Positions 18,394 to 46,066 of a stretch of DNA of 64,000 nt are shown piece after piece. The notes under the pieces are model-generated. The model was not told where the DNA came from, did no database searches, and saw nothing but the letters and a program-made list of their open reading frames with translations. Source of the DNA: Elusimicrobium sp. An273. GTDB taxonomy: Bacteria > Elusimicrobiota > Elusimicrobia > Elusimicrobiales > Elusimicrobiaceae. The stretch covers positions 248,001 to 312,000 of the forward strand of contig NZ_NFJD01000002.1 in assembly GCF_002159705.1 (NCBI RefSeq), written 5' to 3'. Numbering within the stretch: position 1 is the first letter of the stretch; each line of letters starts with the position of its first letter. The translations under genes were made by a program, and so were the position numbers.

Positions 18394-18394
18394 T

Positions 18395-19014: not shown

Positions 19015-19021
19015 AACAGGT

Positions 19022-19318
19022 TCACTCCCGCAGGGGCGCGGCCATCGCTTCTATTTCCTGCGCCTGCTTGCGGACGTATTCGCTCGCACCCGAGTTCTCC
19101 GCCAGCACCAGTTCCCGCACCGCCCGCGTAAGGCCCATTTGCGCTTCCTTGGCTTGCACCAGTTCTTCGGCCGTAGGCGCGGCGGGGGCGGGCGTTTTGA
19201 CTACTACAAAATAATCCCCCTCCAACTTCATTTCCGCCTGATGCTCATTGCACCATTTCGCCGCCTGTTGGTATGCTTCCGACAACATTTCTTCTTTTTT
19301 GATTTTTGTTCCTAACAT
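19022..19318 (-). CDS. Small phage protein of unknown function after the tail fibre
   Basis: 98 residues, no membrane segment. An N-terminal mixed region (CNEHQAEMKLEGDYFVVV) is followed by a Pro/Ala linker and a helical C-terminus (ELVQAKEAQMGLTRAVREL). Its place immediately downstream of the tail fibre is typical of fibre-assembly chaperones, but I see no family signature. AAGGAG 8 nt upstream supports the start. Confidence 0.55.
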   Translation of the reverse strand: MLGTKIKKEEMLSEAYQQAAKWCNEHQAEMKLEGDYFVVVKTPAPAAPTAEELVQAKEAQMGLTRAVRELVLAENSGASEYVRKQAQEIEAMAAPLRE

Positions 19319-21152: not shown

Positions 21153-21160
21153 ATACTCTC

Positions 21161-22609: not shown

Positions 22610-22611
22610 TC

Positions 22612-23097: not shown

Positions 23098-23098
23098 A

Positions 23099-29786: not shown

Positions 29787-30392
29787 TTAATTGTTTTTTC
29801 CGTACAACGCCTCGGCGAATGTTTTATCCTGCGGGGCGGCGGGTTTGCCGCCGGGCAAAACGTCTTCGCTGATACTTTTCCCGATCTCGTAAAAGGTACG
29901 GACAATGACGGGATGGTTCCCCAGCCCCGTGGCTTCCAACAGCCCGCGCAGTTCCGGGCCACCAAACGCGTCCGCCGCGCGCACCGCCAGCGAAATGACT
30001 TCGCCGCATTGGGCGCCGTAGAGCGCTTGGGTTTGTTCGGCCCACCGTTCCAGCAGTTGGCGTTTTTCTTCCGCGCCGTGCTGGGCGCCAGAGCGGACGA
30101 AGCGGGCTTCCAAATCAAGCAGTTTTTGCACCTGATCTTCGGAAAGGCCCATTTCCTGCGAAAGCGTTTTAAAATCTTCCAACGCCGCTTCCGGGAAGGA
30201 AACGTCCTCGGGCAGTTGTAAGTTGGGATAAGCCGCCGGGTCTGGGGCGGCGTCCGTCCGCGAGGTGTTCTGGTCAGGAGGGGTCTCCTCCCTGCCCGGA
30301 ACCGGGTCGGCCTGGGGCCGCGCGGACGGGGCGTTTAAATCGGATGGTTCTTGGGGGGCGGCTTGCGGGGCCGCCGTTTCGGCTGGGTTCAT
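29787..30392 (-). CDS. Capsid scaffolding protein
   Basis: 201 residues: a disordered Pro/Ala/Asp-rich first 75 residues, then helices (FPEAALEDFKTLSQEMGLSE, DQVQKLLDLEARFVRSGAQ) and a basic, Gly/Pro-containing C-terminus. Composition and position directly before the capsid gene fit a scaffold that is removed during maturation. AGGAGG stands 10 nt before the ATG, which overlaps the stop of the Bbp19-like gene by 4 nt. Confidence 0.78.
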   Translation of the reverse strand: MNPAETAAPQAAPQEPSDLNAPSARPQADPVPGREETPPDQNTSRTDAAPDPAAYPNLQLPEDVSFPEAALEDFKTLSQEMGLSEDQVQKLLDLEARFVRSGAQHGAEEKRQLLERWAEQTQALYGAQCGEVISLAVRAADAFGGPELRGLLEATGLGNHPVIVRTFYEIGKSISEDVLPGGKPAAPQDKTFAEALYGKNN

Positions 30393-30884: not shown

Positions 30885-32486
30885 TTATTTTTCCGGAGAA
30901 GGGGCCGCCCCGGCTGCGGCGGGCGCCTGCGCCGCAGCCGCCAATTGCTGGGCCGCCTGCATGCGTTCGGCGCGGATTTGGCGGGTTTCCTGCTCGCTAC
31001 GTAACAGAGCAGGCGCCACTCCCAGCGTGGTAAGACCTTCTTCCAAGGCGCGGTCGTAATCTACGCGGTCTAACACTTCCGGCCGCGAGGCCGCCAAGGA
31101 AGCCGCATAATTAAGGCCCTTCACCAGGGCCGATAGTCCGGCCGCTTTTTGCGCTTGTGCAATCATAGACACGTATTCCACCTCCATCTCAAGTCCTTCA
31201 ATGCTCTGGGGCGGCGGCGGCAATAAGCCTTGGCGGAACAACAGGTTAAACGCGCGGTCTATCAGCGGGTCTAAGAGTTCGTTTTTCAGCCGTTCCAGCA
31301 CCGGCCCCAATACAAGCAGCTTTTCCTGATGGCGTTCGGCCACTTCGGCGGCGGTCATATTGGAATAATTTTGCGTGGAAAGCATTAAAAACACGTCTGC
31401 AAAAAACTGGGCGCGGATGGTGTCGCGCACGCTTTGGATGGAAGCTTCCAGCGATTTTAAATCCGGCTGCACTTCATAGGCCGGCTTCACGGCGGCGTCC
31501 GTGGTGCCGTTGTAGCGGGTAATGCCGCCCGGCAGCAGGTTCACTTCCCCCTGCACGTTGGAAGAAACCATCATCGGCGGGTTGGTGCTTTTGTCCAAGG
31601 CGACGAGTTTTGTTTTCTGCATTTTTTGCAGCATTTTCACGTCGCCCAAGCACTTCCACCCCGGGCCGCGGCCGTAAACGTCGGAAGCGTTTTTCACTTC
31701 CCAGCGCGCCGCGATGACCGGAAATTCCCGGTAACCGCTTTGGCGCAGCAAATGGCCGTTGTCCGTTAAATACACGGACAGATAAGGCATATGCGCGCTG
31801 TCTTGGCGGGCGGGGTTTTGCGCCGGGTTGGGCAAAATCAAATGAATAATTTTATGCCAGCGGAAGGTGCGGTTTTCGTCGCACTCGCGGGCAACGGCCG
31901 GCGGCAGGTGCTCCGGGCCGAACGTATCTTTCATTTGCTCGGCCGTCATAAAAAATTCCCGCCCAAAACGGTTTACCCGGCCGGCGGCGTCGGTTCCCAA
32001 GGCGTATTCCCCAATGGTAAACGGACGGCAGCGGATGCCTTTTTGCGGGTCTTCTTCCACCAAAAACGCGGCCGTGCCGAATACGGAAATTTCCTGATAA
32101 AACCCGTGCAGCACGCTGTAGACGTTGCTCTTGGCAAACACGTCTTCCAAACGTTTTTTAATTTCAAACATCCACTCCCGCGCGCCGGGCAGGTTCATCA
32201 GTTCTTCGGGGGCAAGCGTGAGGTCAAACCAGCTGCGCGAGGGGCTGGTCAGCCCGCTCATCATGCCGGCGCACAGCACTTCCACCGCCAGGCACGGGTC
32301 GGAATCCAGCAGGGTTTTGTGGTCAATGCGGCGGCCTTGATTGGGGGTTTGCCCGTCAAAAAAGCCGCGGGTGGGCGCCAAATAAGCGCTGAGTTCTTTC
32401 CAAGCGGGCGTCCAGGAGGCGCGCTCGCTTTTCAGCTCGTCATAGAGGCGCAAATAATCGGTTGTTTGTTGTGTATTATGTTTCAT
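30885..32486 (-). CDS. Portal (head-tail connector) protein
   Basis: 533 residues of the podoviral head-tail connector type. YDELKSERASWTPAWKELSAYL, then GLTSPSRSWFDLTLAP and WKCLGDVKMLQKMQKTKL are the conserved blocks; the C-terminus is Ala-rich. Twelve copies form the ring through which DNA is packaged. The ATG lacks a ribosome site (GGACTCCCT precedes it), but family alignment supports this start. Its probable promoter lies 400 nt upstream. Confidence 0.92.
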   Translation of the reverse strand: MKHNTQQTTDYLRLYDELKSERASWTPAWKELSAYLAPTRGFFDGQTPNQGRRIDHKTLLDSDPCLAVEVLCAGMMSGLTSPSRSWFDLTLAPEELMNLPGAREWMFEIKKRLEDVFAKSNVYSVLHGFYQEISVFGTAAFLVEEDPQKGIRCRPFTIGEYALGTDAAGRVNRFGREFFMTAEQMKDTFGPEHLPPAVARECDENRTFRWHKIIHLILPNPAQNPARQDSAHMPYLSVYLTDNGHLLRQSGYREFPVIAARWEVKNASDVYGRGPGWKCLGDVKMLQKMQKTKLVALDKSTNPPMMVSSNVQGEVNLLPGGITRYNGTTDAAVKPAYEVQPDLKSLEASIQSVRDTIRAQFFADVFLMLSTQNYSNMTAAEVAERHQEKLLVLGPVLERLKNELLDPLIDRAFNLLFRQGLLPPPPQSIEGLEMEVEYVSMIAQAQKAAGLSALVKGLNYAASLAASRPEVLDRVDYDRALEEGLTTLGVAPALLRSEQETRQIRAERMQAAQQLAAAAQAPAAAGAAPSPEK

Positions 32487-32565: not shown

Positions 32566-32745
32566 ATGATGGGTATTATTACGATTTTGATTTTTGTAGT
32601 GTTGTTGGCGGTGCCGGGGTTTTACATCATTACCCGGAAAGTATTTCCGAAAGGAAGCAAAAAATCAGCGATGTGGATTTCTATTCTGCTGACGATTTTG
32701 TTGGTAGGAATTCTGGCGGCCGTAACGGCAACTACACCGGTATAA
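32566..32745 (+). CDS. Small two-helix membrane protein opposite to the phage operon
   Basis: 59 residues with two membrane helices (IITILIFVVLLAVPGFYII and SAMWISILLTILLVGILAAV) joined by the basic loop RKVFPKGSKK. AAGGAGGG lies 9 nt before the first ATG (a second ATG follows directly) and a terminator lies 24 nt after the stop, so it is a real unit despite its size. It has no family signature. Phage-encoded small membrane proteins of this shape often act in superinfection exclusion or as toxins or antiholins. Which applies here cannot be told. Confidence 0.72.
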   Translation: MMGIITILIFVVLLAVPGFYIITRKVFPKGSKKSAMWISILLTILLVGILAAVTATTPV

Positions 32746-33108: not shown

Positions 33109-34233
33109 TTATTCTTCCGACTGAAGAATTACCGTCATATCCGAGCCAAGAATTTTCTTATACGGCGAGGGTTTTACCCAGCTTTCCACCAACCGGGCCC
33201 GCGGCGAAGAATGAAATTGGGCCCGCACGGCAGCTTCTTCCCGGAAATAAATAAACAAAGGGTTATTCAGCGTGAGATATTCCGGCACCGTAAACAGTAC
33301 CACAAAAGAATCTCCCCCCAGCATAGAAGGGAGGTTAAAGTCCTGATTATACCCTACGTGGCCAAAGCCCGCATAGACGACAATCAGCGCATCCGGCTCC
33401 TGCTGGCGCAGCGCCCGCAGGTATTGCGCCCACATTTTGTTGCGCAGGCGCACGCCTTCAAACGAGCAAGAAAAATCTTCATACATTTGATCGGTCGGTT
33501 TTTGGCGGGTCGTCCGCACGATGAAATTTTGCAGTTCATTCTCCCGCTCTAATCCAATCACCGGTATCCCCGCTTTTACCGCGGCGTACAACACCCGTAC
33601 CGATACCCGCCGCGTATCCGGCAGCAGCTGCGCGATTTCTTCCGGGCGCGTAACGGTCCGGTCTGCCCCCAGCGGCAATTGTTCATAAGCCGGCAAGAAC
33701 TCCGTGGCCAAATAAATTTTCCGCCCGGGATACAGCTTCGGCAACGCTTGGATGAGGCGGGTTACTTCCTCCGCCAAGGGCACTATGCCATGCACTTCCC
33801 CCAAGTAGAGCGTTTTTAAATCTTTGGGAAGGTAGGCCGCGTAAGGGATGTCGCCGGTATACACACAGCTCTGGATGCGCCCGACAATGGAAGCGGAATG
33901 CGCATGAAATTTTTCATAATTTTGGGTAAACCGCTGGAGAGATTTAAAAATATAGGCATTATTTTTCTTGGAAACAGCCCCGTAAAGCGCAGGATCCAAC
34001 TGGGCAGAAATATGCGTATTCCATAAGTCCGCCCCATGGGCAGACATAACCGCCGGCGGCAAATACATATACATATTGCCCAATTCAAACGAAAGGCATT
34101 TTCCACCGGCCGCCTGTACGCCGGATTTGGAAAGTGCCGGCAGCAGCGGGCGCAGCGCTTTGGCCGCTTGGGCAAATGCGCTTTGCGGGAACACCAGAAC
34201 AACCAGAAGTAAAAAACAGACGATTTTTTTCAT
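33109..34233 (-). CDS. Secreted ChaN/EreA-like protein, paralogue 8 (most divergent)
   Basis: 374 residues with a signal peptide (MKKIVCFLLLVVLVFPQSAFA-Q). The core motifs of the array are kept: LYLGEVHG at 142-149 (GExH, H148), IYLATEF near 173, RLRNKMWAQYLR near 262 and DALIVVYAGFGHVGY with H292. GExH and the late GxGH are the paired metal or haem-ligand motifs of the ChaN/TIKI/EreA superfamily. The N-terminal QKxLLPAxRA motif is altered (QAAKALRPLLPAL), the YPLED block is replaced by GLEREN and the GFDY ending is lost, so this copy is the most divergent. GAGGG before the ATG overlaps the previous stop, so it is the operon's last gene. Confidence 0.75.
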   Translation of the reverse strand: MKKIVCFLLLVVLVFPQSAFAQAAKALRPLLPALSKSGVQAAGGKCLSFELGNMYMYLPPAVMSAHGADLWNTHISAQLDPALYGAVSKKNNAYIFKSLQRFTQNYEKFHAHSASIVGRIQSCVYTGDIPYAAYLPKDLKTLYLGEVHGIVPLAEEVTRLIQALPKLYPGRKIYLATEFLPAYEQLPLGADRTVTRPEEIAQLLPDTRRVSVRVLYAAVKAGIPVIGLERENELQNFIVRTTRQKPTDQMYEDFSCSFEGVRLRNKMWAQYLRALRQQEPDALIVVYAGFGHVGYNQDFNLPSMLGGDSFVVLFTVPEYLTLNNPLFIYFREEAAVRAQFHSSPRARLVESWVKPSPYKKILGSDMTVILQSEE

Positions 34234-34242
34234 ATTCCCTCT

Positions 34243-35658
34243 TTATTTTTGGGGCACCGCCCACGCATAATCAAACCCTACCTGCCGGCCTAATAAACGG
34301 GCGTTTTCTCCCGTCCAATAATACAAGCTGGAAGTAATATGATTGCGCACAAAGAACGGGTCTTCTTTTCCCCACACGTGATAGAGCAGGGAGTGGCGAG
34401 AAGGCACTTCGGAAGTAACGTCCAACACTACGGGGTGTTCGCCGGCAAAAAATTTAGGAAGCGCAAAAGGCATTAACCACGAAGTATGCCCGACACCGGC
34501 ATAGACCAAGAACAACGCGTCCGGATCCTGCTTGCGGATTTCCGTCATTTTTTCTTCTATGACGCGCGCCCAAATTTTATTGCGTTCCGACAACGCAAAG
34601 AGCGACAAAAATTCTGCTTTCGTCATATTTTGATGAAACATTTTAAACTGGGTCGGATCTTCCAGCGGGTACACCTCCACATTTCTCATCAAGGCCACAA
34701 AGAAGAACGACAGGGCGTACCCGATTTGGTCGCTGTGTTTAAGAGTAATCGGCTCCAGCGGCGTTTCTGGCACGCGGCGGTAATAGGTGGCAATGGTATT
34801 GCGGGAACCCGCCTGGGCCGGCGGCAAATCTATAAATTCCGTGAACAGGACAATCCGGCGGTTCGGATTCTGTTGCCGAATCTCATTTAACAAAGAGGCC
34901 AAGTTGTATTGAATTTCATCATGATGATGCGTTTCTCCAAAGAAAACGAGTTTTTCTTTGGACAGTCGGGATGCCAAATAGCTGATTTCATCTTCCCCTT
35001 GATAGCGGACTAACTCGTTTTTCCCCTGCCCGGGGTATTTGCGCAGCCAGTCGGATTTATCGGCAAATCCGCGGCTGAAAAACAGGCTCAGTTTATTGGT
35101 TTTCAAAGCCGTTTCGCTAGGGGTAAGCTGCGGCATAAAAATGGCTCTTAATACAGGAATATCTTCTTCGGGCGCGAAGCGGGCCTTCCAAAGATCCATA
35201 ACGGCTTTATAACTTTCGTATACTTCCCGCTGCAGGCCTTCGGCCTTGCCCGCCGTCACTTCTTCCGGCAAGGCAGTCAAATCCGCAATGACACTCGATT
35301 TCTTTTTAGGCTTTGCAAACAGGCGGATTTTTTTTAAAGACGCATCCAAAAGCTGTTTCCAATTTTTTGAATCAGACGTTGTTTTTTTGTTAAAAAAGAT
35401 TCCCTGTACGGCCGCCGGGTCGCTCCAAGAAGCCACTTCAGCGCTTCCCAAGCCGGACTGCAGCGCCTGCACCTTTGCGACGGAAGGAGAAACGACCTTT
35501 CCCGCCGCACCGGGCAAACGGCCCGCCTGTGGGGCAACGGCCTTGGGCCCCGCCGTCAGCGCGCGTACGGCTGGCACCGCTTTTTTCTGTGCCCATACCG
35601 GCACGCCCGCCCCCACCACACAACAGGCCAACAACAAAATACGAAAAAACTTACCCAT
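34243..35658 (-). CDS. Secreted ChaN/EreA-like protein, paralogue 7
   Basis: 471 residues, signal peptide ending near VWA-Q. The mature start is QKKAVPAVRAL. The N-terminal 220 residues are a helical region special to the array. The core has LVFFGETHHHDEIQ (GETH, H244; the extra His run is unique to this copy), RRIVLFTEFIDLP, EVYPLED, RNKIWARVIEEKM and ALFLVYAGVGHTSW (H391). It ends GFDYAWAVPQK. The fold should be ChaN-like; haem binding or metal hydrolase activity are both possible. AGGAG stands 6 nt before the ATG. Its stop is 9 nt before the next start, so the genes are one operon. Confidence 0.78.
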   Translation of the reverse strand: MGKFFRILLLACCVVGAGVPVWAQKKAVPAVRALTAGPKAVAPQAGRLPGAAGKVVSPSVAKVQALQSGLGSAEVASWSDPAAVQGIFFNKKTTSDSKNWKQLLDASLKKIRLFAKPKKKSSVIADLTALPEEVTAGKAEGLQREVYESYKAVMDLWKARFAPEEDIPVLRAIFMPQLTPSETALKTNKLSLFFSRGFADKSDWLRKYPGQGKNELVRYQGEDEISYLASRLSKEKLVFFGETHHHDEIQYNLASLLNEIRQQNPNRRIVLFTEFIDLPPAQAGSRNTIATYYRRVPETPLEPITLKHSDQIGYALSFFFVALMRNVEVYPLEDPTQFKMFHQNMTKAEFLSLFALSERNKIWARVIEEKMTEIRKQDPDALFLVYAGVGHTSWLMPFALPKFFAGEHPVVLDVTSEVPSRHSLLYHVWGKEDPFFVRNHITSSLYYWTGENARLLGRQVGFDYAWAVPQK

Positions 35659-35671
35659 ATTAAACTCCTAT

Positions 35672-36949
35672 TTAAGGCATTGCCGGCGTTTCAAACGGAA
35701 GCAGTACCTGAGCGTCAAAGCCCAAAACAGATGAATAATTTGAATCTTTTTTCCAAGTCATTAAATACGGTTTATCCACTTCAGCCATGCGGTAAGGAGT
35801 TTTCCCTTGCAGCAACCCCAAAAAACCGCTTTGAAAACCGTTTCTAAGTTCGATGCAAAAAGGCTTTTTGTCTTGCAGCATGCGGGCCAGCGACTCCGCA
35901 ATGCTCTTACTAATATGCTTGTTCCCGGCATATACAAAAAACACGGCATCGGGCGTCTGGCGAAGCGTTTGCTCCATCACCCGCCGGATAATGCCTTCCC
36001 AATACTTATTGCGCACCGGCATCACCCGAAAAGACGTATTGGCCACCGTAAACTCCAGTTGGCTCAGCTCCACCGTTTTTTGATACGTAAACCGGATATC
36101 TTCCAGCCCGTAAATATCCATTGACAGCGACTGCCCCAGCCGATAAATTTCGTTCGCAAAATCGGGATTCTTTTCAAAAAAGTCCGCCGGCACCGCTTGC
36201 CCGGCCTGCCAAAAGGACGGATGACTGCTTGGCAAAAACTCAGAAAACAAAACGATTTTCCGCTTCGGATAGCGCGCATGATACTGCCGCAGCAGCGCCG
36301 CCATTTCCGCCTGCAAATTGGCCCGTCCGTGCACTTCCCCCACCAGAATCAGGCGGTTTTCCGGCCCAATCGTCTGCGCCAACAGCCCGGGGCGGTCTAT
36401 TTCCGTAATTTGTAAAGCGGCGTGGATATCCGCCTGATGCGCCATTACATACGCGGCCTGTTTTTTAAAGTTCGGCGCAATCCGCAGCAGCCAGTCGTTG
36501 TTTTCGACTGCAAAGCGGGTATTCGTCGTCAAGAAAGGGTACCAATCCAAAAACAGCCGGGCCTGTTCGGCCGTAAAACCCAACGCAAGGAATTTAACGG
36601 CCTGCAAACGCAGGGCTTGGGGCGCGTTGCTAAAAATAAACTTTTCTATCTCGTCCAGTTCCCGCAAGGTGCCGCGGCGGCTCTGCTGCAACAGCACCGA
36701 GCGGTTCACCGCCGCAGACAAACTTTCCAGCTGTTGTAAGGAAATCTGCACCGGCGGCACATACGAAAACGGCCCCTTTACGCTGACGGGAGGAGCCCAA
36801 TGCAAGACGGACGCGCCGGCGGCTTTCTTCACGCTTCCGGCACCGGCCGCGCGCAACGCCGGAACAAGCTGCTTTTGGGCCCACGCCTGTAGAGGCGTTC
36901 CCAAACTGCTCAGGATGAATAGGCTGCCCAGCAAGATGCGTTTTAACAT
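35672..36949 (-). CDS. Secreted ChaN/EreA-like protein, paralogue 6
   Basis: 425 residues with signal peptide (cleavage near AWA-Q) and mature start QKQLVPALRAA. Core motifs: LILVGEVHGRANLQ (H207), KRKIVLFSEFLP, IYGLEDIRF in place of YPLED, RNKYWEGIIRRVM and DAVFFVYAGNKHISKS (H345). It ends GFDAQVLLP. The late motif reads GNKH instead of GxGHTS, so this copy diverges at the second active-site element together with paralogue 8. AGGTG just before the ATG overlaps the TGA of the preceding gene. Confidence 0.76.
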   Translation of the reverse strand: MLKRILLGSLFILSSLGTPLQAWAQKQLVPALRAAGAGSVKKAAGASVLHWAPPVSVKGPFSYVPPVQISLQQLESLSAAVNRSVLLQQSRRGTLRELDEIEKFIFSNAPQALRLQAVKFLALGFTAEQARLFLDWYPFLTTNTRFAVENNDWLLRIAPNFKKQAAYVMAHQADIHAALQITEIDRPGLLAQTIGPENRLILVGEVHGRANLQAEMAALLRQYHARYPKRKIVLFSEFLPSSHPSFWQAGQAVPADFFEKNPDFANEIYRLGQSLSMDIYGLEDIRFTYQKTVELSQLEFTVANTSFRVMPVRNKYWEGIIRRVMEQTLRQTPDAVFFVYAGNKHISKSIAESLARMLQDKKPFCIELRNGFQSGFLGLLQGKTPYRMAEVDKPYLMTWKKDSNYSSVLGFDAQVLLPFETPAMP

Positions 36950-36953
36950 ACGT

Positions 36954-38297
36954 TCACCTGTTTTCTTCCGGCACTACCAAGGCATAATCAAAACCTGTTT
37001 TCTGCGCAAAAATGCGCCCCAGTCCGCTTTTCCAATAGTATAGCGTTAAATCGGAATGAGGGGTAAAGAAGACATCCTCTTTTCCCCACACGGTATACAA
37101 GGCGGAAACGGACGAAGGCTGACCAAGCGTTACTTCTACCACCGCCGGTTTTTCAGCGGCGAAAAACTTGGGCAACGAATAGGGCAACAGCCACGAAGTA
37201 TGCCCGATTCCGGCATACACCACAAACAAGGCGTTGGGATCGGTCTGCCGAACGGCGGCCATTTTGCGCTCTATAATCCGCGCCCAGGTTTTATTGCGAA
37301 GCGAAATGGAAAGCGCCGGATTTTTGACCTGGCATATAGGCCCGCATTCCTGTTCCAACACTTCCATCAGCCGGCGGTCTTCCAGCGGATAAATTTCCAC
37401 TTTTTCTTGGAACAAACGCAAAAATAAATTGGCTGCATAATCGATGCGCGCGGCGGACGAAAAATCTTCTTGGTTTAATTTGTCCAAAGACATTTCCTTG
37501 GTTTTCAAATAATAGTCCGACAGGGAACTTCCTTCCCGGGGAGCGTTGGAATTTAAATCAATAAATTCCGTAAATAAAATCACCCGGCGGCGCGGATTTT
37601 GCTTTTTTAAAAACAAAACTAATTTGGTGATGGTCTGCTGTACGGAAGAAATCCCGTGCTGTTCGCCGATAAGGATCATTCTTTCTTTGTTTAATTTTTG
37701 GGCAAATTCGCCCAGCACATTGTCCGACTGCAGCCGCCCCAATAATTTGCGCCCTTGGTCGGGCACGTTGGCGAGCCACTGCATTTTGCCAAAGAAATTT
37801 CTGCTGGCTAGCAAAACGATTTTGTTGTTTTTTACCGCAAATTCGGACGGCCATTCAATCGGCTTATAAATGCTTTTAAACAGCCAATTGTTTAAAAACT
37901 GGTTGTTCCATAACCAAAGTTTCTTTACTTCCGTTACCACTTCCCGGTTCCGCTTCGCCCATTCCGAACTCACGTTGGCCTGATAATACAGCTCCAATAA
38001 CTGCGAAAGCAGATCTTCCATTTCTTCTTGCTGAACCCGTATGTTTTTTAACGAAACATTGGCCAAAAACGCCTCTTCCGCCGCCGCAGCGTCTGCCACT
38101 TCCTCCAACTCTTTGCCTAACGCCGAGCGAAAACCGGACGTTCCTGTTTTCCCCGTTTGCCCGCCAACCGCATTTTTTACGGCGTCTCCTTTTACGGCAC
38201 GCGCAATGGGCAGCAGGCGTTTTTGCGCCCACAACGAAGGGGCCGCCAGCATGCCGCATCCGAGCAAAAGGAGTACAAATACAATTCTTTTTTTCAT
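36954..38297 (-). CDS. Secreted ChaN/EreA-like protein, paralogue 5
   Basis: 447 residues. The signal peptide ends near LWA-Q and the mature start is QKRLLPIARAV. A helical N-terminal region with an acidic stretch (KELEEVADAAAAEEAFL) precedes the core: MILIGEQHGISSVQ (H214), RRVILFTEFIDLN, EIYPLEDRR, RNKTWARIIERKM and ALFVVYAGIGHTSW (H366). It ends GFDYALVVPEENR. The start is preceded by TATAGT 11 nt upstream and lacks a good ribosome site, so a second internal promoter is likely here (-35 weak). Confidence 0.78.
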   Translation of the reverse strand: MKKRIVFVLLLLGCGMLAAPSLWAQKRLLPIARAVKGDAVKNAVGGQTGKTGTSGFRSALGKELEEVADAAAAEEAFLANVSLKNIRVQQEEMEDLLSQLLELYYQANVSSEWAKRNREVVTEVKKLWLWNNQFLNNWLFKSIYKPIEWPSEFAVKNNKIVLLASRNFFGKMQWLANVPDQGRKLLGRLQSDNVLGEFAQKLNKERMILIGEQHGISSVQQTITKLVLFLKKQNPRRRVILFTEFIDLNSNAPREGSSLSDYYLKTKEMSLDKLNQEDFSSAARIDYAANLFLRLFQEKVEIYPLEDRRLMEVLEQECGPICQVKNPALSISLRNKTWARIIERKMAAVRQTDPNALFVVYAGIGHTSWLLPYSLPKFFAAEKPAVVEVTLGQPSSVSALYTVWGKEDVFFTPHSDLTLYYWKSGLGRIFAQKTGFDYALVVPEENR

Positions 38298-38342
38298 CTT
38301 TAACTTATACTATATTTCTTTTTTTAAGTTCTATAAAAATTT

Positions 38343-39743
38343 CTACTGCATCCGCTCCGCCCACGCAAGGTATTGGCGCAGCAGTTTCCCTCTGAAAGAA
38401 GCCGGCAGCACCCACAAGTAATCAAACCCGCTGTTTTGAACCAATTGCTTGGCGTCCGCCCCTTCCCAGTACGAAAGGGAGGCCTGCTGGGGGTTGGAAA
38501 ACGGCGCGCTGTCCGCCCCCCACAGGGCGTACAGAACATTATTTTTAAAAGCAAGATCAAACTGAAATTCTACGACGACCGGTTTTTCCGGGGCGAAGAA
38601 AGCCGGCAGCGGGCTTTGGCGCCGCCAAGACGTATGGCCCGTCCCGGCGTACACGATAAACAACGCATCGGGATCCGTCCGGCGGATTTCATCCATTTTT
38701 TGCCGGATAATCCGCGCCCAGGTTTTGTTGCGGTACGAAACCCCCAACGCCTGCGCTTCTTGTCCGCCAGACGCCTTCAGCAAATCCGAAAAATCCCGAT
38801 CTTCCAAGGGATATACTTCCACCCGGGCCTGCAGCAACCGCTGGAACACGCCTCTGGCATAGGGTTGTTTGGCCGCGGCTTGTTTGGAAAGCTGCGGCGC
38901 CGTATGCGCATCTATTCTTCGGTAATAGGTTTCCAAAGTTTGATTGGCAATTTGTTTTCCTTGCGAAGGCAACGCTAAAAATTCCGAAAACACCACTATT
39001 CGGCGGGCGGGATTTTGTTTTTTGAGCTGTACAATCAAATCCCCCACCGCTTGTTGTACTTCAAATCTAAAATGCGTTTCCCCCAGCAGAATCAATTTTT
39101 CCTGCTGCAGGCGTGCGGCCAGCTGCCGGGCCAGATTGCCGGAAGTAACGGTTTTCAGGGCCTGGCGCCCTTGGTTCGGATACCGATCCATCCACGTAAA
39201 TTTTTGATACAGGCGCTGTAAATAATTTAAAAGCAGTCTGTTGTTGGCCACCGCTACCGAAGAATACTCCCGCATCGGCATAATTCCCTGCATATACTTC
39301 AGCATTTTTTGAAAACGTCTATCGCCAAGGCCCACGTTATCTATTTCCTGCAGCGTTTCCTGAAATTCGCCCAACGTTTGCAAATGCCCGGTGCCCGTGC
39401 CTCCGGCCGCCAGATGTTTGCGCCACGCGGTTACGGGGCGGTGCAAATCCACCCGTTTCAACAAAACCTGCTGTTTGAGGCGTCTCCAAAGAGCGGACTC
39501 TTTGGGGGACGCCATAAAACGCTGCGGCATTTTTACCGAAGGCTGCCAGGAGAGGCAAGCGTCTTTTAAATGTTCCGAATAAGGAACCGAAACGCCCTTT
39601 ATGAGGTTTTTTTGCACTTGCAGCGGCTGTTTAACGGCCCCGGCCCGAACGGCCGGCAGCAGCTGTTTTTGCGCAAACGACGTCCCGGCCCCGAACAGGC
39701 CGACGGTGATGAAGATAAATAAAAATTTCTTTTGTATCCTCAT
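38343..39743 (-). CDS. Secreted ChaN/EreA-like protein, paralogue 4
   Basis: 466 residues. Signal peptide to SFA-Q, mature start QKQLLPAVRAG. The long N-terminal helical region is closest to paralogue 1 (shared TSVTNWRKH/VTAWRKH and EFQxTLxxID blocks). Core: LILLGETHFRFEVQ (H224), RRIVVFSEFLALP, EVYPLEDRDF, RNKTWARIIRQKM and ALFIVYAGTGHTSW (H370). After GFDYLWVLP it carries an extra basic tail (RGKLLRQYLAWAERMQ), again as in paralogue 1. The ATG follows the previous stop by 2 nt without a ribosome site, so it depends on translational coupling. Confidence 0.78.
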   Translation of the reverse strand: MRIQKKFLFIFITVGLFGAGTSFAQKQLLPAVRAGAVKQPLQVQKNLIKGVSVPYSEHLKDACLSWQPSVKMPQRFMASPKESALWRRLKQQVLLKRVDLHRPVTAWRKHLAAGGTGTGHLQTLGEFQETLQEIDNVGLGDRRFQKMLKYMQGIMPMREYSSVAVANNRLLLNYLQRLYQKFTWMDRYPNQGRQALKTVTSGNLARQLAARLQQEKLILLGETHFRFEVQQAVGDLIVQLKKQNPARRIVVFSEFLALPSQGKQIANQTLETYYRRIDAHTAPQLSKQAAAKQPYARGVFQRLLQARVEVYPLEDRDFSDLLKASGGQEAQALGVSYRNKTWARIIRQKMDEIRRTDPDALFIVYAGTGHTSWRRQSPLPAFFAPEKPVVVEFQFDLAFKNNVLYALWGADSAPFSNPQQASLSYWEGADAKQLVQNSGFDYLWVLPASFRGKLLRQYLAWAERMQ

Positions 39744-39745
39744 TT

Positions 39746-41008
39746 TTAGGGCAATATCAGTGCGTAATCAAAGCCGGTCTGCCTGCCTAACAGACGGGCC
39801 TCCCGCCCCTGCCAATAGAACAACGCCTGCTTGCGGAAATACGGATGTTCCCGATCCCACACCCCGCAAAGCGTATTTATTTCGGAAGGTTCCCCCACCG
39901 AAAATTCCACCACGGACGTTTTTTCTTTGGCAAAAAATTTGGGCAGGGCATACGGCATAATCCAGGAGGTATGCGCCATGCCGGCGTACACCACAAACAG
40001 CGCATCCGGATCCGTCTTGCGGATCTGCGCCATTTTATGCTCCATCATCCGCGCCCAGGTTTTGTTGCGAAGGGTAATAGCCAAGGCAGACACCTGCATA
40101 TCCCGCAGCAGGCCCTCTTCCTGATAAATCATCGAGCACAGCTTGCGGTCTTCCAGCGGATAAATTTCAAAATGATCGTCCAGTAAAATTTCAAACAAAT
40201 CCCGCGCATAATCCAACCGCTTAAAAAGATGCGGATCATCCTCTTGGATCCGTTCGGTGGGGAACTCGCTGGCGCGGCGATAGTAAGAAGCCAGCGAAGC
40301 GGGAGCTCCCTCCCGTGCCGTGGGCGGCAAATCTATAAACTCGGTAAACAACACAATGCGCCGGCCCTGGTTACGATCTTTCAATGCATAGAGCAGCTGC
40401 CCCACCGCCCGCTGGATTTCCGGCACATAATGAAATTCCCCCAGGAAAACGATATGGCTGTCCTCCACTTTGGCCGCCAGCTGCTTGATTAAATTGCCCG
40501 AAGATACATAGCCTAACTCCGCTTGCCCCTGTCCTTTGCGTTGTTTGAGCCACTGGGTTTTTTGCAACAGTGATTTGCTGGCCGCCAGCACGATTTGATT
40601 GTTCTGATAGGCAAACGGGGTGTTCTCCTGTAGCGGCGTATACAACGTTTCATACGCGCCGCCATAGATTAAATCTTCATTTTGTTCCCACGTTTGGTCA
40701 ATCTGGCGCAATAACTCGTCGTTTTTTGCCTGTCTTGTTTTATCCACCTGAAAAAGCGCGCGGCGCTGCAAGCTGTGCTGAAACTTCAGCCGGGAAGCAG
40801 GCGGCACTGCTTGGGCGGCAGGAAAACGGGTTAAAGCCCGAGCGGCAGTGGTGGCGCCAAACGAAGAGGCACTTCCACAGGCGCGGGCGGCCGTTTTGGG
40901 CGCATTTGTAAGCAAGGCGCGGCCCGCCGGCACCAGATTTTTCTGAGCCCATACCGGCGCCGCCGGAACAGATAAAATAAAAAACAACAACAGGACTAAA
41001 TTTTTCAT
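39746..41008 (-). CDS. Secreted ChaN/EreA-like protein, paralogue 3
   Basis: 420 residues. Signal peptide to VWA-Q, mature start QKNLVPAGRAL. Core: IVFLGEFHYVPEIQ (H193), RRIVLFTEFIDLP, EIYPLEDRK, RNKTWARMMEHKM and ALFVVYAGMAHTSW (H346). It ends GFDYALILP. I chose the ATG at 41008 because the signal peptide begins there; the longer frame adds 64 residues of noncoding character. The -10 box TATAGT ends 6 nt before the ATG and no ribosome site exists, so the mRNA is predicted leaderless. The promoter and its upstream repeats are a copy of those before paralogue 1. Confidence 0.8.
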   Translation of the reverse strand: MKNLVLLLFFILSVPAAPVWAQKNLVPAGRALLTNAPKTAARACGSASSFGATTAARALTRFPAAQAVPPASRLKFQHSLQRRALFQVDKTRQAKNDELLRQIDQTWEQNEDLIYGGAYETLYTPLQENTPFAYQNNQIVLAASKSLLQKTQWLKQRKGQGQAELGYVSSGNLIKQLAAKVEDSHIVFLGEFHYVPEIQRAVGQLLYALKDRNQGRRIVLFTEFIDLPPTAREGAPASLASYYRRASEFPTERIQEDDPHLFKRLDYARDLFEILLDDHFEIYPLEDRKLCSMIYQEEGLLRDMQVSALAITLRNKTWARMMEHKMAQIRKTDPDALFVVYAGMAHTSWIMPYALPKFFAKEKTSVVEFSVGEPSEINTLCGVWDREHPYFRKQALFYWQGREARLLGRQTGFDYALILP

Positions 41009-41014
41009 ACTATT

Positions 41015-41043
41015 ACTATATCGTTTTACCGTCTTAAAAAACA
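41015..41043 (-). promoter_or_regulatory. Leaderless promoter of paralogue 3 (copy of the 44051 promoter)
   Basis: TGTTTT, 17-nt spacer, TATAGT, then AATAGT and the ATG. Spacing to the ATG and to the upstream repeats is identical to the promoter at 44051-44079. Confidence 0.65.
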
Positions 41044-41051
41044 GAGTCTTT

Positions 41052-41097
41052 AGGCCTATTGTTTCCCTCCAAAAAGGCCTATTTACCTCTAGGCCCT
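41052..41097. repeat. Three phased AGGCCTAT-type repeats upstream of paralogue 3
   Basis: AGGCCTAT at 41052 and 41075 and AGGCCCT at 41091. Relative to the predicted start they lie at about -44, -67 and -83, positions usual for activator sites. The same set with the same spacing lies before paralogue 1. Confidence 0.7.
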
Positions 41098-41145
41098 CGG
41101 CGGGGCAAAAAGCGCGTCGGACGTTCTTGTAAGGTTTCTTTTTAA

Positions 41146-41178
41146 GCGGCGCTCCGCCGCCCGGATAATCCCGGGCGG
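41146..41178 (-). other. Two mutually exclusive GC hairpins after paralogue 2
   Basis: GCGGCG/CGCCGC (41146-41160) and CCGCCCGG/CCGGGCGG (41157-41178) share four bases, so only one can form at a time. They lie 30-60 nt past the paralogue 2 stop codon on the minus strand. No T run follows, so termination is uncertain. Confidence 0.5.
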
Positions 41179-41209
41179 GAAAAGCGACATTTGGTAACAA
41201 GCAGGAGGA

Positions 41210-42544
41210 TTATTCTCCGGGCACAACGAGCAGGTAATCAAAACCGCTGCAGTTGGCCAGCTGGCGGGAGTCTTCGCCTTGCCAGGAGAAGAAACTGGGA
41301 TGCAAAGGCGGATTTATAAAAAGCGGATCATCGGAAGGCCAAAGGATTTTAAGCGAGGTATGATCCAGCAATCTGTTTAAAGCCAGTTCCACCACCACCG
41401 GTTTTTCAGCGGCGAAAAATTTGGGCAATGCCATCGGAGAAAGCCACGAAGTATGCGCTTGGCCGGCATAGACAATAAAAAGCGCGTCCGGATCTGTTTG
41501 GCGTATTTCCGCCATTTTAGCCGCCATCACCCGCACCCACGATTTGTTGCGCGCAGTCGTAATGACAGGCGCATCCAGCGAACCGCTCGTCTCTTTGGCC
41601 AATAAGGCAAACTGCCGGGTATCTTCCAGCGGATAGACTTCCACTTGGTGCTTAATTAACTGACGAAAAAGCGACGGAGCGTATAAAAACAGCCTTTGGT
41701 CTGTCGCCGCCAGCGGCTGAATTTCTGGTGCGGTAAAGTGTTTGTAATAAGTTGCCAAAGTCTGCCCGTTGCCGCTCTTTTCTTTGGGAAGCGGGATAAA
41801 CTCCGTAAACAGCACGACGCGGCGGTTTGGGTTTTGCTTTTTTAAAGTCAGCACCAAATTCACTACCGCCCGCTGAAAGGCCGGAACAAAATGATACTCC
41901 CCCAGCATAATTAATTTTTCTTGGCTTAACTGCCGCGCTAATTGGGCAAAAACGTTGCTTCCGCCTTCGGCCCCTTGCGGCTGATGCTGCGGATCTGCTC
42001 CCTTCACAAAAGCCTCTTTTGCCAGGTTCGTGTTCTGTTGGAGCCATTTCATTTTTTGAATATAATGGTTCAGGGTATGCAAAACGATTTGGTTGTTTTG
42101 TATGGCAAGCGGAGAAAAAACCGTCATATGGAAAAAAGAAGTCGAAAAGAGCTGCGCGTAATCAAACGAGCTGTAGGTGGTTTTCAAGCGTTCAATTTCG
42201 GCATACGTATTGATAAATTTTTGCAATTGCTGCAGGTCATTTTCTTTCAGTTCCCGCTCATATCCCCGGGCAGAAAAACTTTTTAGCAACCCGGCAGACG
42301 CATCTGACGCGCCGGTTTGAGCACTGAATAGGTCTTTTAAAGTGAAATGGCGGCTTACAGGCGCCCCTTGGCCCGCAGGCAATGCAAAAGCGGCGCCAGT
42401 GGCCAAAGCGGGCAAGGCGGGCGTTTTTACGGCCGTTTGCAGTGCCGTTTTTCCAACGACCGCTTTTGCGGCGGGCAGCATATTTTTTTGCGCCGCCGCC
42501 GGAAGCGCCAAACAAAACACCAAAAATAAAATTATTTTTCTCAT
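41210..42544 (-). CDS. Secreted ChaN/EreA-like protein, paralogue 2
   Basis: 444 residues. Signal peptide MRKIILFLVFCLALPAAA-Q, mature start QKNMLPAAKAV, then an Ala-rich region. Core: LIMLGEYHFVPAFQ (H218), RRVVLFTEFIPLP, EVYPLEDTRQ, ARNKSWVRVMAAKM and ALFIVYAGQAHTSW (H364). It ends GFDYLLVVPGE. An in-frame ATG at 42559 is possible, but the signal peptide begins at 42544. TAAAAT lies about 13 nt upstream; the phased GGCCTAT repeats of paralogues 1 and 3 are not present here. Confidence 0.78.
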   Translation of the reverse strand: MRKIILFLVFCLALPAAAQKNMLPAAKAVVGKTALQTAVKTPALPALATGAAFALPAGQGAPVSRHFTLKDLFSAQTGASDASAGLLKSFSARGYERELKENDLQQLQKFINTYAEIERLKTTYSSFDYAQLFSTSFFHMTVFSPLAIQNNQIVLHTLNHYIQKMKWLQQNTNLAKEAFVKGADPQHQPQGAEGGSNVFAQLARQLSQEKLIMLGEYHFVPAFQRAVVNLVLTLKKQNPNRRVVLFTEFIPLPKEKSGNGQTLATYYKHFTAPEIQPLAATDQRLFLYAPSLFRQLIKHQVEVYPLEDTRQFALLAKETSGSLDAPVITTARNKSWVRVMAAKMAEIRQTDPDALFIVYAGQAHTSWLSPMALPKFFAAEKPVVVELALNRLLDHTSLKILWPSDDPLFINPPLHPSFFSWQGEDSRQLANCSGFDYLLVVPGE

Positions 42545-42649
42545 TTCTGCATTTACCATTTTAAAATCCGTTTTTAGCCCGATCCATTTGGAGTTTTTCC
42601 CCCGTCTTTGGGCCCAGCCAAACGCTGGCCCGGCGGGCGAAATTCCGCC

Positions 42650-44044
42650 CTAGAGCGAATTTATAAAAGAAACATACTTGCGCTGCAGTTTCCCTTTCAG
42701 CGAATGCGGCACCACCACCAAATAATCAAATCCGCTGTTGCGCGCCAGCAGCGAAGCGTCTTCTCCCGTCCAATACGAGAAAGAAGCCCGAAGCGGCCTT
42801 GCAAAGAGCGGAACTTCTTCCCCCCACAAAAAATGGAGGATATTCTTTTTTACAAACGGATCAAACTGAAATTCCACCGTTACCGGTTTTTCCGGCGCAA
42901 AAAAGGCGGCCAACGGATATTGCCGCTGACGGTTTACGTGACCTAAGCCCGCATATACAATAAACAATGCATCCGGATCGGTTTTGCGGATCTGCGCCAT
43001 TTTATATTCCATCACCCGCGCCCATATTTTATTGCGGGAAGCCACTTGCAGTAACATGGCTTTTTGTCTGTTCGCCGCCTTTAATAAATCAATCAGCACC
43101 ACATCTTCCAGCGGATAAACTTCCACCTGCGCACGAACCAGCCGCAGCAGCACATCCCGTGCGTATCTTTTTTGCTGGGCTTGTTCTACAGAGAGCTGCG
43201 GCGAAGTGCTCTCGTCCACCCGGCGGTAATACGTTTCGGCCGTTTGGTTGACGACCTGCGGCCCGGCTACGGGCAAATGTGCAAATTCGGAAAACACTAC
43301 AATGCGGCGGTTGGGGTTTTGCTTTTTCAGTTCCAAAATCAAATCGCCCACGGCCTGCTGCACTTCCAGCTGATAATGTCCTTCTCCCAGCATAATCAAT
43401 TTTTCCTGCCGCAGCCGGCCCGCCAGTTGGCGCACCACATTCCCCCACGAGGATATGACCGAATGCAGTGCATCGCGGCCTTGGTTGGGGTAGTGTTTCA
43501 TCCAGTTAAACTTTTGATGCAGATACTGTAAATGACTGACGAGCAGTTTATTGTTCAGTACGGCCTCGGCGGAATAGTCCGATAAGAGGGATGCCTCGGG
43601 GCGGAAGAAAAGGAATTTCTTAAAGTCCGGATCCTGCAACGTCATCCGGTCAATTTGTCTTAATGTCGCTTGGAATTCTTCGGGGGTTTGCAAACTGCTT
43701 TCATAGGAGGCGGCCTGGTGTTTGCGCCAGTTTGTTACAGACGCATAAGGCGTCAGAAACGGCTTACTCAACTGTTTTCGAATAAACTCCCTCAGCAAAA
43801 ATTTATCGGCCCCCGGCAATCGTTTTATCCTCTCATAGGCAGCCGGAACGTTTCTTCCGCCAAAAACAGCGGCATCCGGCGGCAAATTTAAGCCGGGCAC
43901 CCCCACCGCGGAGATTCCTTTTGCCAGATGCTGAGACACCCCCGCTGGCCGGGCCATCCCCGCGCGCACGGCCGGCAGCAGATTTTTCTGCGCATAGGCG
44001 GGCACCGTTAAACATAACATAAAAAACAAATAAGACTTTCTCAT
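42650..44044 (-). CDS. Secreted ChaN/EreA-like protein, paralogue 1
   Basis: 464 residues. Signal peptide to AYA-Q, mature start QKNLLPAVRAG. The N-terminal helical region matches paralogue 4. Core: LIMLGEGHYQLEVQ (H223), RRIVVFSEFAHLP, EVYPLEDVV, SRNKIWARVMEYKM and ALFIVYAGLGHVNR (H369). After GFDYLVVVP comes the tail SLKGKLQRKYVSFINSL. ChaN relatives bind haem; EreA and TIKI relatives with the same GExH fold hydrolyse esters or peptides, so the function stays open. The start at 44044 is 6 nt after TATAGT with no ribosome site (leaderless). It is the first gene after terL. Confidence 0.8.
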   Translation of the reverse strand: MRKSYLFFMLCLTVPAYAQKNLLPAVRAGMARPAGVSQHLAKGISAVGVPGLNLPPDAAVFGGRNVPAAYERIKRLPGADKFLLREFIRKQLSKPFLTPYASVTNWRKHQAASYESSLQTPEEFQATLRQIDRMTLQDPDFKKFLFFRPEASLLSDYSAEAVLNNKLLVSHLQYLHQKFNWMKHYPNQGRDALHSVISSWGNVVRQLAGRLRQEKLIMLGEGHYQLEVQQAVGDLILELKKQNPNRRIVVFSEFAHLPVAGPQVVNQTAETYYRRVDESTSPQLSVEQAQQKRYARDVLLRLVRAQVEVYPLEDVVLIDLLKAANRQKAMLLQVASRNKIWARVMEYKMAQIRKTDPDALFIVYAGLGHVNRQRQYPLAAFFAPEKPVTVEFQFDPFVKKNILHFLWGEEVPLFARPLRASFSYWTGEDASLLARNSGFDYLVVVPHSLKGKLQRKYVSFINSL

Positions 44045-44140: not shown

Positions 44141-45463
44141 TTACAGCACCTCGTACTCGCTGTTGGCAAATTCGCATTTGCCACCCGCGCTTCGCGCGCG
44201 CACGGGAGCGGCAAACGTAAGGGCCAGGGCGTCTGCCGTGTCGGGGCTTTTGCCGCAGCGCTCTTTGATTTTTTCTTTCGGCTCCAGGCGCAAGCGTCCG
44301 GCGGCGTCAAAGTCATAACACACTTGGCACAAATCCGCTTTCAGTTCCGCACACTCCGGCAGGGCGCCTCCCGCCTTTATCCACGCCGCCATTTCCCCCC
44401 ACATTTCCGCCCGCTTGTTGGCATACTGCCCCGGGCGGGCCGGCGCGCCGCCGAAAGGCACTTCCGTTACGCTAAACCCCAGCTGGCGCAGGCGGTCAAT
44501 CACGCCGCCGCCGCAACCGGCATCCACAAACACCGCATCAGGATGAAACGTTTCTATCTGCCGGGCCGCCCGTTCGGCCAGGGCCATATTGTCCAACTGC
44601 CGAAATACCAGCGGCTCCCACGTTTTTAACCCCTGACGCAAAAAGATGACGCTGCGGTCGTTTCCGAAACGGGCCGGATCAATGCCGATGATTTTGGGTG
44701 CAAAACGCACTTCGGCCGGCGCATAACGGCGCGCACAGGCCTGCAGGACGCAGTCTATGGGGATTAATACATTCTCCGCCGAGGCCGTAAAATCGCACAG
44801 GTATTCCTGCCTGAAAATGTTGGCGGGTGTTTCCCGGCGCAGGCGCTCGAGTTCCCCCGGAGAGATGACGCCCGATTCATCGGCGCGGAATACGCCCACC
44901 CACCACACGCCGGGCTCTTCCTGCGCGGCCTTTTGGGCGCGGTTAAACAGTTCAAAAAATGCGTTTTGCCCTTTGGGCGTACCCATAAACACGGCCCACC
45001 CTTCCCGCGAAAGAAGCATCGGGCGGATAATTTCGGTAAACACATCGGGCTTAATCTGGGCGTATTCGTCCAACACAACGCCGTCTGCATATGTGCCGCG
45101 CAGGGCGTCTGGATTATCGGCGCCGCACACCCAAATCCGCGCGCCGTTGGGCAGGCGCAGGCACAGTTCCGCTTCGTTTACGCCCACGCCCGGCAGCGGG
45201 GCCGAATAACGTTTTAAATAATCCCAGGCAATCATTTTGGCCTGCTTTAAAAAAGGCGCCAAATAGAAATAGCGCGAATGCGGCCGCGTGTTCTGCAGGG
45301 CTTTTTTAAGCAAGTGATTAACGGCGCAGACGGTCTTGCCCAGCTGGCGATGGGTAACCAGCACGCAAAAGCGGTGCGTTTCCAGCTGGGGGTGAATTTG
45401 ACGCTGCGCCAGGCGCGGATGATAGGGGATGGTAATCAGCCAATCGGAAGGTTGTTTTTTCAT
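44141..45463 (-). CDS. Terminase large subunit
   Basis: 440 residues. The packaging ATPase half has the Walker A-like THRQLGKTVCA (37-47, QLGKT variant), Walker B with catalytic Glu in GVVLDEYA (128-135) and the coupling motif FMGTPKGQN. The nuclease half begins at IIGIDPARFGNDRS with its first metal Asp. It pumps DNA into the head and cuts it. The ATG at 45463 overlaps the terS stop by 4 nt; the longer frame is the antisense of terS in another phase. All key residues are intact. Confidence 0.93.
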   Translation of the reverse strand: MKKQPSDWLITIPYHPRLAQRQIHPQLETHRFCVLVTHRQLGKTVCAVNHLLKKALQNTRPHSRYFYLAPFLKQAKMIAWDYLKRYSAPLPGVGVNEAELCLRLPNGARIWVCGADNPDALRGTYADGVVLDEYAQIKPDVFTEIIRPMLLSREGWAVFMGTPKGQNAFFELFNRAQKAAQEEPGVWWVGVFRADESGVISPGELERLRRETPANIFRQEYLCDFTASAENVLIPIDCVLQACARRYAPAEVRFAPKIIGIDPARFGNDRSVIFLRQGLKTWEPLVFRQLDNMALAERAARQIETFHPDAVFVDAGCGGGVIDRLRQLGFSVTEVPFGGAPARPGQYANKRAEMWGEMAAWIKAGGALPECAELKADLCQVCYDFDAAGRLRLEPKEKIKERCGKSPDTADALALTFAAPVRARSAGGKCEFANSEYEVL

Positions 45464-45894: not shown

Positions 45895-46037
45895 AAAAAC
45901 TCCTTGGTAAGCAAACGGCATGACAGCCAAGCCTGTACAAACAGGCACGGCCAAAACCGGAAAAAGAAAAGAGGAAAACGGGCGGACGCCCCAGATAAAA
46001 AAATTACAAACCGCACAGTGCGTTTTATAATAAAATT

Positions 46038-46066
46038 ATTATAGCAAAATAAGTGCTTTTTGTCAA
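46038..46066 (-). promoter_or_regulatory. Consensus promoter of the terminase operon
   Basis: TTGACA, a 17-nt spacer ending TTTTGC and TATAAT on the minus strand. It is nearly identical in its -10 region to the tRNA promoter at 1825, so host RNA polymerase can read it without phage factors. The leader is about 140 nt. Confidence 0.85.

What the first reader, a model, noticed from the sequence alone, without database searches (positions are those of the whole stretch)
33109..44044. Eight tandem secreted ChaN/EreA-like paralogues inserted between terminase and portal
Seen: eight signal-peptide proteins of 374-471 residues in a row, each with GExH, RRxVxFxEF and VYAGxxH, and most with YPLED and RNKxWxRxxxxKM. 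They split the packaging genes from the head genes. The ChaN/TIKI/EreA superfamily includes haem-binding and metal-hydrolase proteins. A fast-expanding secreted family inside a phage cassette is not something I know from any described system. It could act on haem, glycans, lipids or rival cells, or be a lysogenic-conversion cargo delivered by the particles.
Basis: partly seen in the sequence, partly recalled or inferred. Interest (0 to 1): 0.86.

Follow-up and report, generated by a model that had tools for sequence, protein, structure and literature searches.

The report
Hypervariable exported hydrolases in a GTA-like cassette
In a group of gut bacteria (Elusimicrobia), an old phage-derived particle-making gene set that is inherited like a normal chromosomal gene carries, inside its DNA-packaging operon, a fast-changing row of up to eleven exported enzymes, which suggests that these bacteria pair DNA-shuttling particles with enzymes that act outside the cell.

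Summary
Eight tandem, exported, mutually homologous ORFs (374-471 aa) lie between terminase and portal. They have the TIKI/EreA/ChaN fold (AlphaFold pLDDT 88 and 86; Foldseek hits HopBA1, Ere enzymes, ChaN). Across 86 relatives the superfamily's catalytic set is invariant: GExH, Glu, Arg, GxxH. The family falls below the Pfam ChaN cutoff and shows no lipobox, so 'ChaN' is not the right name.

The larger finding is the setting. It is not an ordinary prophage. The particle cassette is podovirus-type and 15-18 kb without the array. It occurs once in 62 of 66 genomes of the genus, usually beside the same tRNA-Thr gene, without integrase or replication genes. It follows rpoB (Mantel r 0.92) under purifying selection. 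That is a GTA-like, vertically inherited element, in a phylum where I found none reported. The hydrolases sit between two perfect-consensus promoters conserved across the genus.

Between sister genomes the head genes are 98.5-100% identical, while the hydrolase block has 8 versus 3 copies and 3-20 times the synonymous divergence.

Best reading: exported hydrolases made with the packaging enzymes, acting outside the cytoplasm on a polymorphic partner. Substrate, particle production and link to DNA transfer are inferred.

The parts
33109..34233 (-). Hydrolase 1 (374 aa), portal-proximal copy; position-conserved founder clade
   Evidence: gene tree clade of 18 portal-proximal rows, support 99; fold
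34243..35658 (-). Hydrolase 2 (471 aa)
35672..36949 (-). Hydrolase 3 (425 aa), second old cassette lineage (9 rows)
36954..38297 (-). Hydrolase 4 (447 aa), modelled by AlphaFold2 (pLDDT 88.3); active-site set E212 H214 E244 R334 H366
38343..39743 (-). Hydrolase 5 (466 aa)
39746..41008 (-). Hydrolase 6 (420 aa from ATG)
41210..42559 (-). Hydrolase 7 (449 aa)
42650..44044 (-). Hydrolase 8 (464 aa from the ATG at 44044)
44141..45463 (-). Terminase large subunit (called ORF runs to 45685; the extra 74 aa overlap TerS and carry stops in relatives)
   Evidence: PF03237
45460..45954 (-). Terminase small subunit-like
   Evidence: PF16677; phrog_3064
46038..46066 (-). Promoter P1, TTGACA-N17-TATAAT, before TerS-TerL-hydrolases
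45997..46031 (-). Terminator-like hairpin with T-run directly behind P1
32894..32923 (-). Promoter P2, TTGACA-N18-TATAAT, before the portal operon
32566..32745 (+). Conserved 59-aa membrane-type ORF opposite the portal leader
30885..32486 (-). Portal (head-to-tail connecting protein)
   Evidence: PF12236 E 9e-159
28799..29776 (-). Major capsid protein (GP7 type)
   Evidence: PF20911 E 2e-114
29787..30392 (-). Head protease/scaffold-like
   Evidence: phrog_458
24503..27699 (-). Tail nozzle (24503-27112) and tail tube (27112-27699)
   Evidence: PF25675, phrog_376, phrog_394
19323..23295 (-). Tail fibre (19323-21194), fast-evolving internal-protein candidate (21161-22609), gp14-like (22612-23295)
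17990..19318 (-). Lysis region with M15 peptidase endolysin (18395-18784)
   Evidence: PF13539
16929..17002 (+). tRNA-Thr(CGT), same neighbour of the cassette in most of the genus

Best explanation
SHOWN: this is a podovirus-derived particle cassette (TerS, TerL, portal, protease/scaffold, capsid, tail, fibre, endolysin) that a genus of gut Elusimicrobia inherits vertically at one chromosomal site, i.e. a GTA-like domesticated element. Inside its packaging operon, between promoters P1 and P2, it carries 1-11 exported TIKI-superfamily hydrolases with an intact 2His/2Glu plus Arg active site. The portal-proximal gene is an old resident; the others are duplicates that turn over much faster than everything around them. 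INFERRED: the hydrolases are made together with the packaging enzymes from P1 when particles are made, pass the inner membrane and act in the periplasm, on the surface, or outside after lysis. They would cleave a peptide or ester bond with water activated by the first His and the Glu. Their diversified N-terminal lobe and active-site loops would choose the substrate. INFERRED, least certain (about 0.3): the substrate is a polymorphic envelope molecule of the producer or its kin (receptor, pilin or wall peptide), so that the enzymes tune who adsorbs or re-adsorbs particles, which would explain the diversification.
For: Cassette: portal found in 64 of 149 genomes of the order, 62 of these in this genus and nearly always one intact copy. 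MCP in 62 of 66 genus genomes, nearly all one copy at 86-100% identity; TerL in 59 of 66. Gene order is the same in the genomes examined, with no integrase, recombinase or replication gene recognised. The same tRNA-Thr lies beside it in 13 of 15 relatives checked, and an O-antigen-ligase-like gene and a pilin in most. rpoB against portal distance r 0.92 (22 genomes, 0 of 2000 permutations); MCP 0.86, TerL 0.94. dN/dS portal 0.04, MCP 0. Enzyme: fold. Invariant G211 E212 H214 E244 R334 G363 H366 in 86 sequences with mean column identity 19%, the same set shown essential in RRSP (PMC6254334) and used in the EreC mechanism (PMC7979712). Operon: the two perfect promoters in 64 kb (0.04 expected) bracket TerS-TerL-hydrolases and recur across the genus; gene spacing 2-201 bp. 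Turnover: sister genome G061 has 3 copies instead of 8, hydrolase dS 0.53-1.8 against 0.09-0.17 in cassette and flanking genes. Variation sits in the N-terminal lobe and in loops 251-290, 311-330 and 391-420.
Against: No expression, particle or enzyme data. More than half of the cassettes compared (21 of 39) lack the genes at this junction, so they are not needed for particle making. Family members also lie elsewhere in the genome (three such loci in this one; arrays in others), so the function may be general. The high dS shows allele replacement, not by itself diversifying selection; dN/dS within the genes is below 1. Export is judged by eye.
Confidence: 0.6

Rival explanations
1. Bystanders: a secreted hydrolase family with a general job in this genus (nutrient peptidase, antibiotic esterase or similar) uses the TerL/portal junction as a tolerated insertion site and has nothing to do with particles.
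For: Members and tandem arrays at other loci, some next to secreted trypsin-like proteases; 21 of 39 cassettes have none at the junction; at least 4 gains or losses on the portal tree.
Against: The portal-proximal copies form one clade (support 99) whose distances follow portal and rpoB (r 0.76 and 0.74); the block lies inside a promoter-bounded packaging operon.
Confidence: 0.25
2. Prophage cargo: an ordinary temperate podovirus carrying lysogenic-conversion (moron) genes.
For: Complete head, tail and lysis genes; site beside a tRNA gene; real related phages exist.
Against: One copy in nearly every genome, congruent with rpoB, same locus, no integrase and no copy of the tRNA 3' end on the other side; the family is absent from 50,697 phage records and from the IMG/VR scan.
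Confidence: 0.06
3. Haem-binding proteins in the manner of Campylobacter ChaN, storing or taking up haem/iron.
For: Same fold (ChaN 2g5g hit, prob 0.99); sub-threshold PF04187 matches.
Against: All catalytic residues are invariant; no lipobox by eye; better fold matches are HopBA1 and Ere enzymes; no iron or haem genes recognised nearby.
Confidence: 0.06
4. Peptide-signal or self-exclusion peptidases working like PrgY/TraB, which are thought to degrade a donor's own mating pheromone outside the cell (PMC7117660): producers destroy a cue or receptor so that particles go to non-producers.
For: Same superfamily; exported; tied to a DNA-transfer-like machine; polymorphic; no immunity genes.
Against: No signal peptide gene or receptor identified; PrgY is membrane-bound, these are not.
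Confidence: 0.12
5. Secreted antibacterial toxins released with the particles on lysis.
For: Tandem, diversified, exported, rapid turnover.
Against: No immunity ORFs fit in 2-201 bp gaps; no toxin-delivery domain; PADLOC, Pfam and NCBIfam silent.
Confidence: 0.08

Closest known systems
TIKI/EreA/ChaN superfamily hydrolases (EreC, BcR135, HopBA1, RRSP, TIKI, PrgY/TraB)
   Same: Alpha/beta fold; GExH, Glu, Arg and GxxH active site; helical accessory region
   Different: Genus-restricted, signal-peptide-bearing family with an N-terminal helical lobe, in tandem arrays inside a packaging operon; below the Pfam PF04187 cutoff, no match to the Ere family model
ChaN (PF04187) of Campylobacter jejuni
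   Same: Fold and motif order
   Different: ChaN is a haem-binding lipoprotein; here no lipobox by eye, scores 16-25 bits against a 27.7 cutoff, active site intact
Gene transfer agents (RcGTA, Bartonella GTA, Dd1, VSH-1)
   Same: Vertically inherited phage-derived head/tail/terminase/lysis cassette under purifying selection, no integration or replication genes
   Different: Podovirus (BcepC6B/phiV10-related capsid), phylum Elusimicrobiota, one locus with two strong promoters and an embedded exported-enzyme array; particles not shown
FpGTA of Faecalibacterium (PMC12946183)
   Same: Gut bacterium, podovirus-like GTA-like element
   Different: Different phylum; two operons; no such exported hydrolase block noted in the passages I read

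Membership tests
TIKI/EreA/ChaN superfamily | Common alpha/beta core fold | tested here: met
   AlphaFold2 models of two members; Foldseek top hit HopBA1, then Ere enzymes and, for one model, ChaN, all prob at least 0.99
TIKI/EreA/ChaN superfamily | 2His/2Glu catalytic set plus conserved basic residue | tested here: met
   E212 H214 E244 H366 and R334 invariant in 86 sequences; spacings close to RRSP E3900 H3902 E3930 R4001 H4030
TIKI/EreA/ChaN superfamily | The two His and the Glu meet in one pocket | tested here: inconclusive
Pfam ChaN family PF04187 | Score over the curated cutoff | tested here: not met
   15.8-24.6 bits against 27.7
Pfam ChaN family PF04187 | Haem binding | not testable with these tools
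   Needs purified protein
Erythromycin esterase family (Ere) | Match to the family model | tested here: not met
   No Ere family among Pfam hits at E up to 1 or NCBIfam hits at E up to 0.01, five members scanned
Gene transfer agent | Vertical inheritance in a clade at a fixed locus | tested here: met
Gene transfer agent | Structural, packaging and lysis genes without integrase or replication genes, under purifying selection | tested here: met
   some small ORFs remain unassigned
Gene transfer agent | Particles that package mostly host DNA and move it between cells | not testable with these tools
   Needs particle sequencing and transfer assays
Temperate prophage with moron genes | Integrase and attachment sites | tested here: not met
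   None recognised; no copy of the tRNA 3' end on the other side

The most novel reading that the evidence does not exclude
A GTA system with a hypervariable arsenal of exported hydrolases, co-transcribed with its terminase, that edits the surface of producers or kin and so decides which relatives receive the packaged DNA: an enzyme-based kin-recognition layer on a DNA-transfer agent.
Probability: 0.2. Interest if true: 0.92.

Novelty: new variant of a known kind. Interest (0 to 1): 0.72.

Why it matters
GTA-like elements are known from few lineages, and a podovirus type was claimed as a first only in 2026 (PMC12946183). A second, genus-wide one in a largely uncultured gut lineage widens the class. 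The embedded, fast-turnover exported enzyme array is an accessory I found no report of, and it gives a concrete handle on an open question: what governs who takes up GTA particles. It also shows how a conserved domesticated phage locus can shelter a rapidly evolving gene block.

Tried and rejected
Profile search of PDB sequences with the 8-member alignment gave only weak, unrelated hits. NCBIfam and PADLOC gave no hit to the family (NCBIfam tried on five members). Canonical ChaN was looked for in the own genome: none above cutoff. tRNA attachment duplicate: none. Rfam on the cassette: only the tRNA. A shared short motif upstream of array genes (TATAGTAATA-ATG) proved too patchy to call a regulatory element. 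Neighbours of family members outside the cassette gave no common functional theme. A phrogs scan of the lysis ORFs failed on a bad coordinate and was not repeated; Pfam covered them. Literature: papers naming Elusimicrobia with gene transfer agent were five incidental co-mentions.

Full report
OBSERVATION. Eight consecutive minus-strand ORFs lie at 33109-44044, between the large terminase and the portal. They align end to end with 33 invariant columns and all touch Pfam PF04187 below its cutoff. N-termini look like Sec signal peptides ending in AxAQ (by eye).

WHAT THE PROTEINS ARE. With 86 relatives from the genus AlphaFold2 gives a confident model for hydrolase 4 (pLDDT 88.3, pTM 0.80) and, with 18 portal-proximal relatives, for hydrolase 1 (86.2, 0.83). 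Foldseek ranks HopBA1 first for both, with Ere-type enzymes (BcR135, EreC) next and ChaN also found for hydrolase 4, all at probability 0.99-1.00. TM-scores are modest (at most 0.59 by target), so this is superfamily-level similarity. In the 86-sequence alignment the only invariant residues are G211, E212, H214, E244, R334, G363 and H366. These are the positions of the 2His/2Glu set and the basic residue shown essential in RRSP (PMC6254334) and used in the EreC mechanism (H50, E78, H289, R261, with E47; PMC7979712). Both papers describe metal-independent hydrolysis, so a metal should not be assumed. Variation is concentrated in the N-terminal helical lobe and in loops 251-290, 311-330 and 391-420. 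I conclude that these are exported hydrolases of the superfamily, neither ChaN nor Ere proper.

WHAT THE CASSETTE IS. The surrounding genes make a podovirus-type particle: TerS, TerL, portal, protease/scaffold, GP7-type capsid, tail tube, nozzle, gp14-like protein, fibre and an M15 endolysin. The capsid is about 40% identical to BcepC6B and phiV10. No integrase or replication gene was recognised in the window's cassette, and unmapped ORFs in 18 relatives are few. The capsid gene is present in 62 of 66 genomes of the genus, nearly always once and mostly at 86-100% identity; portal in 62 genus genomes, one of them a short remnant; TerL in 59. Portal distances follow rpoB (r 0.92, 22 genomes, 0 of 2000 permutations; capsid 0.86, TerL 0.94). 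The same tRNA-Thr(CGT) neighbours the cassette in 13 of 15 relatives checked. Between the window genome and its sister G061, portal dN/dS is 0.04 and capsid dN is 0. True phages with related heads exist in viral contigs, but with portal at most 57% and capsid at most 66% identical, mostly a different terminase, and no member of the hydrolase family. G005 has lost portal to gp427 by an internal deletion. This is the pattern of a GTA-like domesticated element; particle production is not shown.

HOW THE BLOCK SITS IN IT. The window holds two perfect TTGACA-N17/18-TATAAT promoters, against 0.04 expected. P1 (46066-46038) precedes TerS and P2 (32923-32894) precedes the portal. They bracket TerS-TerL-hydrolases exactly. 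They recur, as perfect or near-perfect copies, at the same places in the cassettes examined, including those without hydrolases. In the whole genome there are only eight perfect copies, one at an rRNA operon. A terminator-like hairpin with a T-run lies directly behind P1, with conserved TACAAA/TTTGTA arms in 20 sequences. I infer attenuation or antitermination of the packaging operon, untested.

HOW THE BLOCK EVOLVES. The family tree separates the portal-proximal copies (18 of 19, support 99), a second cassette lineage (9 rows) and a large array clade that also holds a few copies from elsewhere in genomes. Portal-proximal distances follow portal and rpoB (r 0.76 and 0.74). Presence at the junction (18 of 39 portal-bearing genomes) needs at least 4-5 gains or losses. 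In G061 the flanks and head genes are about 95-98% identical in DNA, falling to 70-87% within the block, with 3 copies instead of 8. Synonymous divergence is 0.53-1.80 in the block against 0.09-0.17 in neighbours. Raised dS means replacement by diverged alleles or paralogues, i.e. recombination and turnover; it does not by itself show positive selection.

HOW IT MOST LIKELY WORKS. Shown: fold, active site, position, promoters, vertical cassette, fast block. Inferred: joint expression with the terminase, export, hydrolysis of a peptide or ester bond. Least certain: that the target is a polymorphic envelope molecule that tunes particle adsorption. Bystander function is the strongest rival (0.25). 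A PrgY/TraB-like role, clearing a self-signal or receptor outside the cell (PMC7117660), is a specific variant worth testing.

NOVELTY. The held literature gives no GTA report for Elusimicrobia, and FpGTA is described as the first podovirus-like GTA-like element (PMC12946183). The embedded exported hydrolase array is, as far as I could find, undescribed. I rate it a new variant of a known kind.

Noticed in passing
window 45997-46066: Strong promoter followed at once by a conserved terminator-like hairpin, as if the packaging operon were controlled by attenuation or antitermination; the TACAAA/TTTGTA arms may also be an operator.
   Followed up: partly
window 32566-32745 (+): Conserved 59-aa, two-helix membrane-type ORF on the opposite strand between hydrolase 1 and portal, present in most cassettes and followed by its own terminator.
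   Followed up: partly
window 21161-22609: A 482-aa structural-module protein without any family hit that evolves much faster than its neighbours (23-44% identity in relatives whose capsids are 88-98% identical); candidate internal/ejection protein.
   Followed up: no
window 44141-45685: The TerL start is misplaced in a plain ORF call: the first 74 codons overlap TerS and contain stops in relatives; the real start is probably 45463.
   Followed up: partly
L049 1-800 (genome G005): Internal deletion from portal codon ~56 to the end of the gp427 homologue, leaving hydrolase 1 and TerL: a decaying cassette (or assembly join).
   Followed up: partly
L186-L198 (IMG/VR contigs): Phages with related head genes (portal 39-57%, capsid 35-66%), mostly with a different terminase; likely phages of related hosts and the outgroup of the cassette.
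   Followed up: partly
L025 6246-13272 and L009 1153-3304: Hydrolase family genes outside the cassette stand next to secreted trypsin-like proteases; L025 is a six-gene tandem array.
   Followed up: partly
L202-L205, L208 (own genome): Five further perfect-consensus promoters of unknown genes; they might mark co-regulated genes.
   Followed up: no
G048:C2, G063:C9 and G056:C4: Second, more diverged portal/capsid sets (portal 34-55%, capsid 37-73%), probably genuine prophages living beside the cassette.
   Followed up: no
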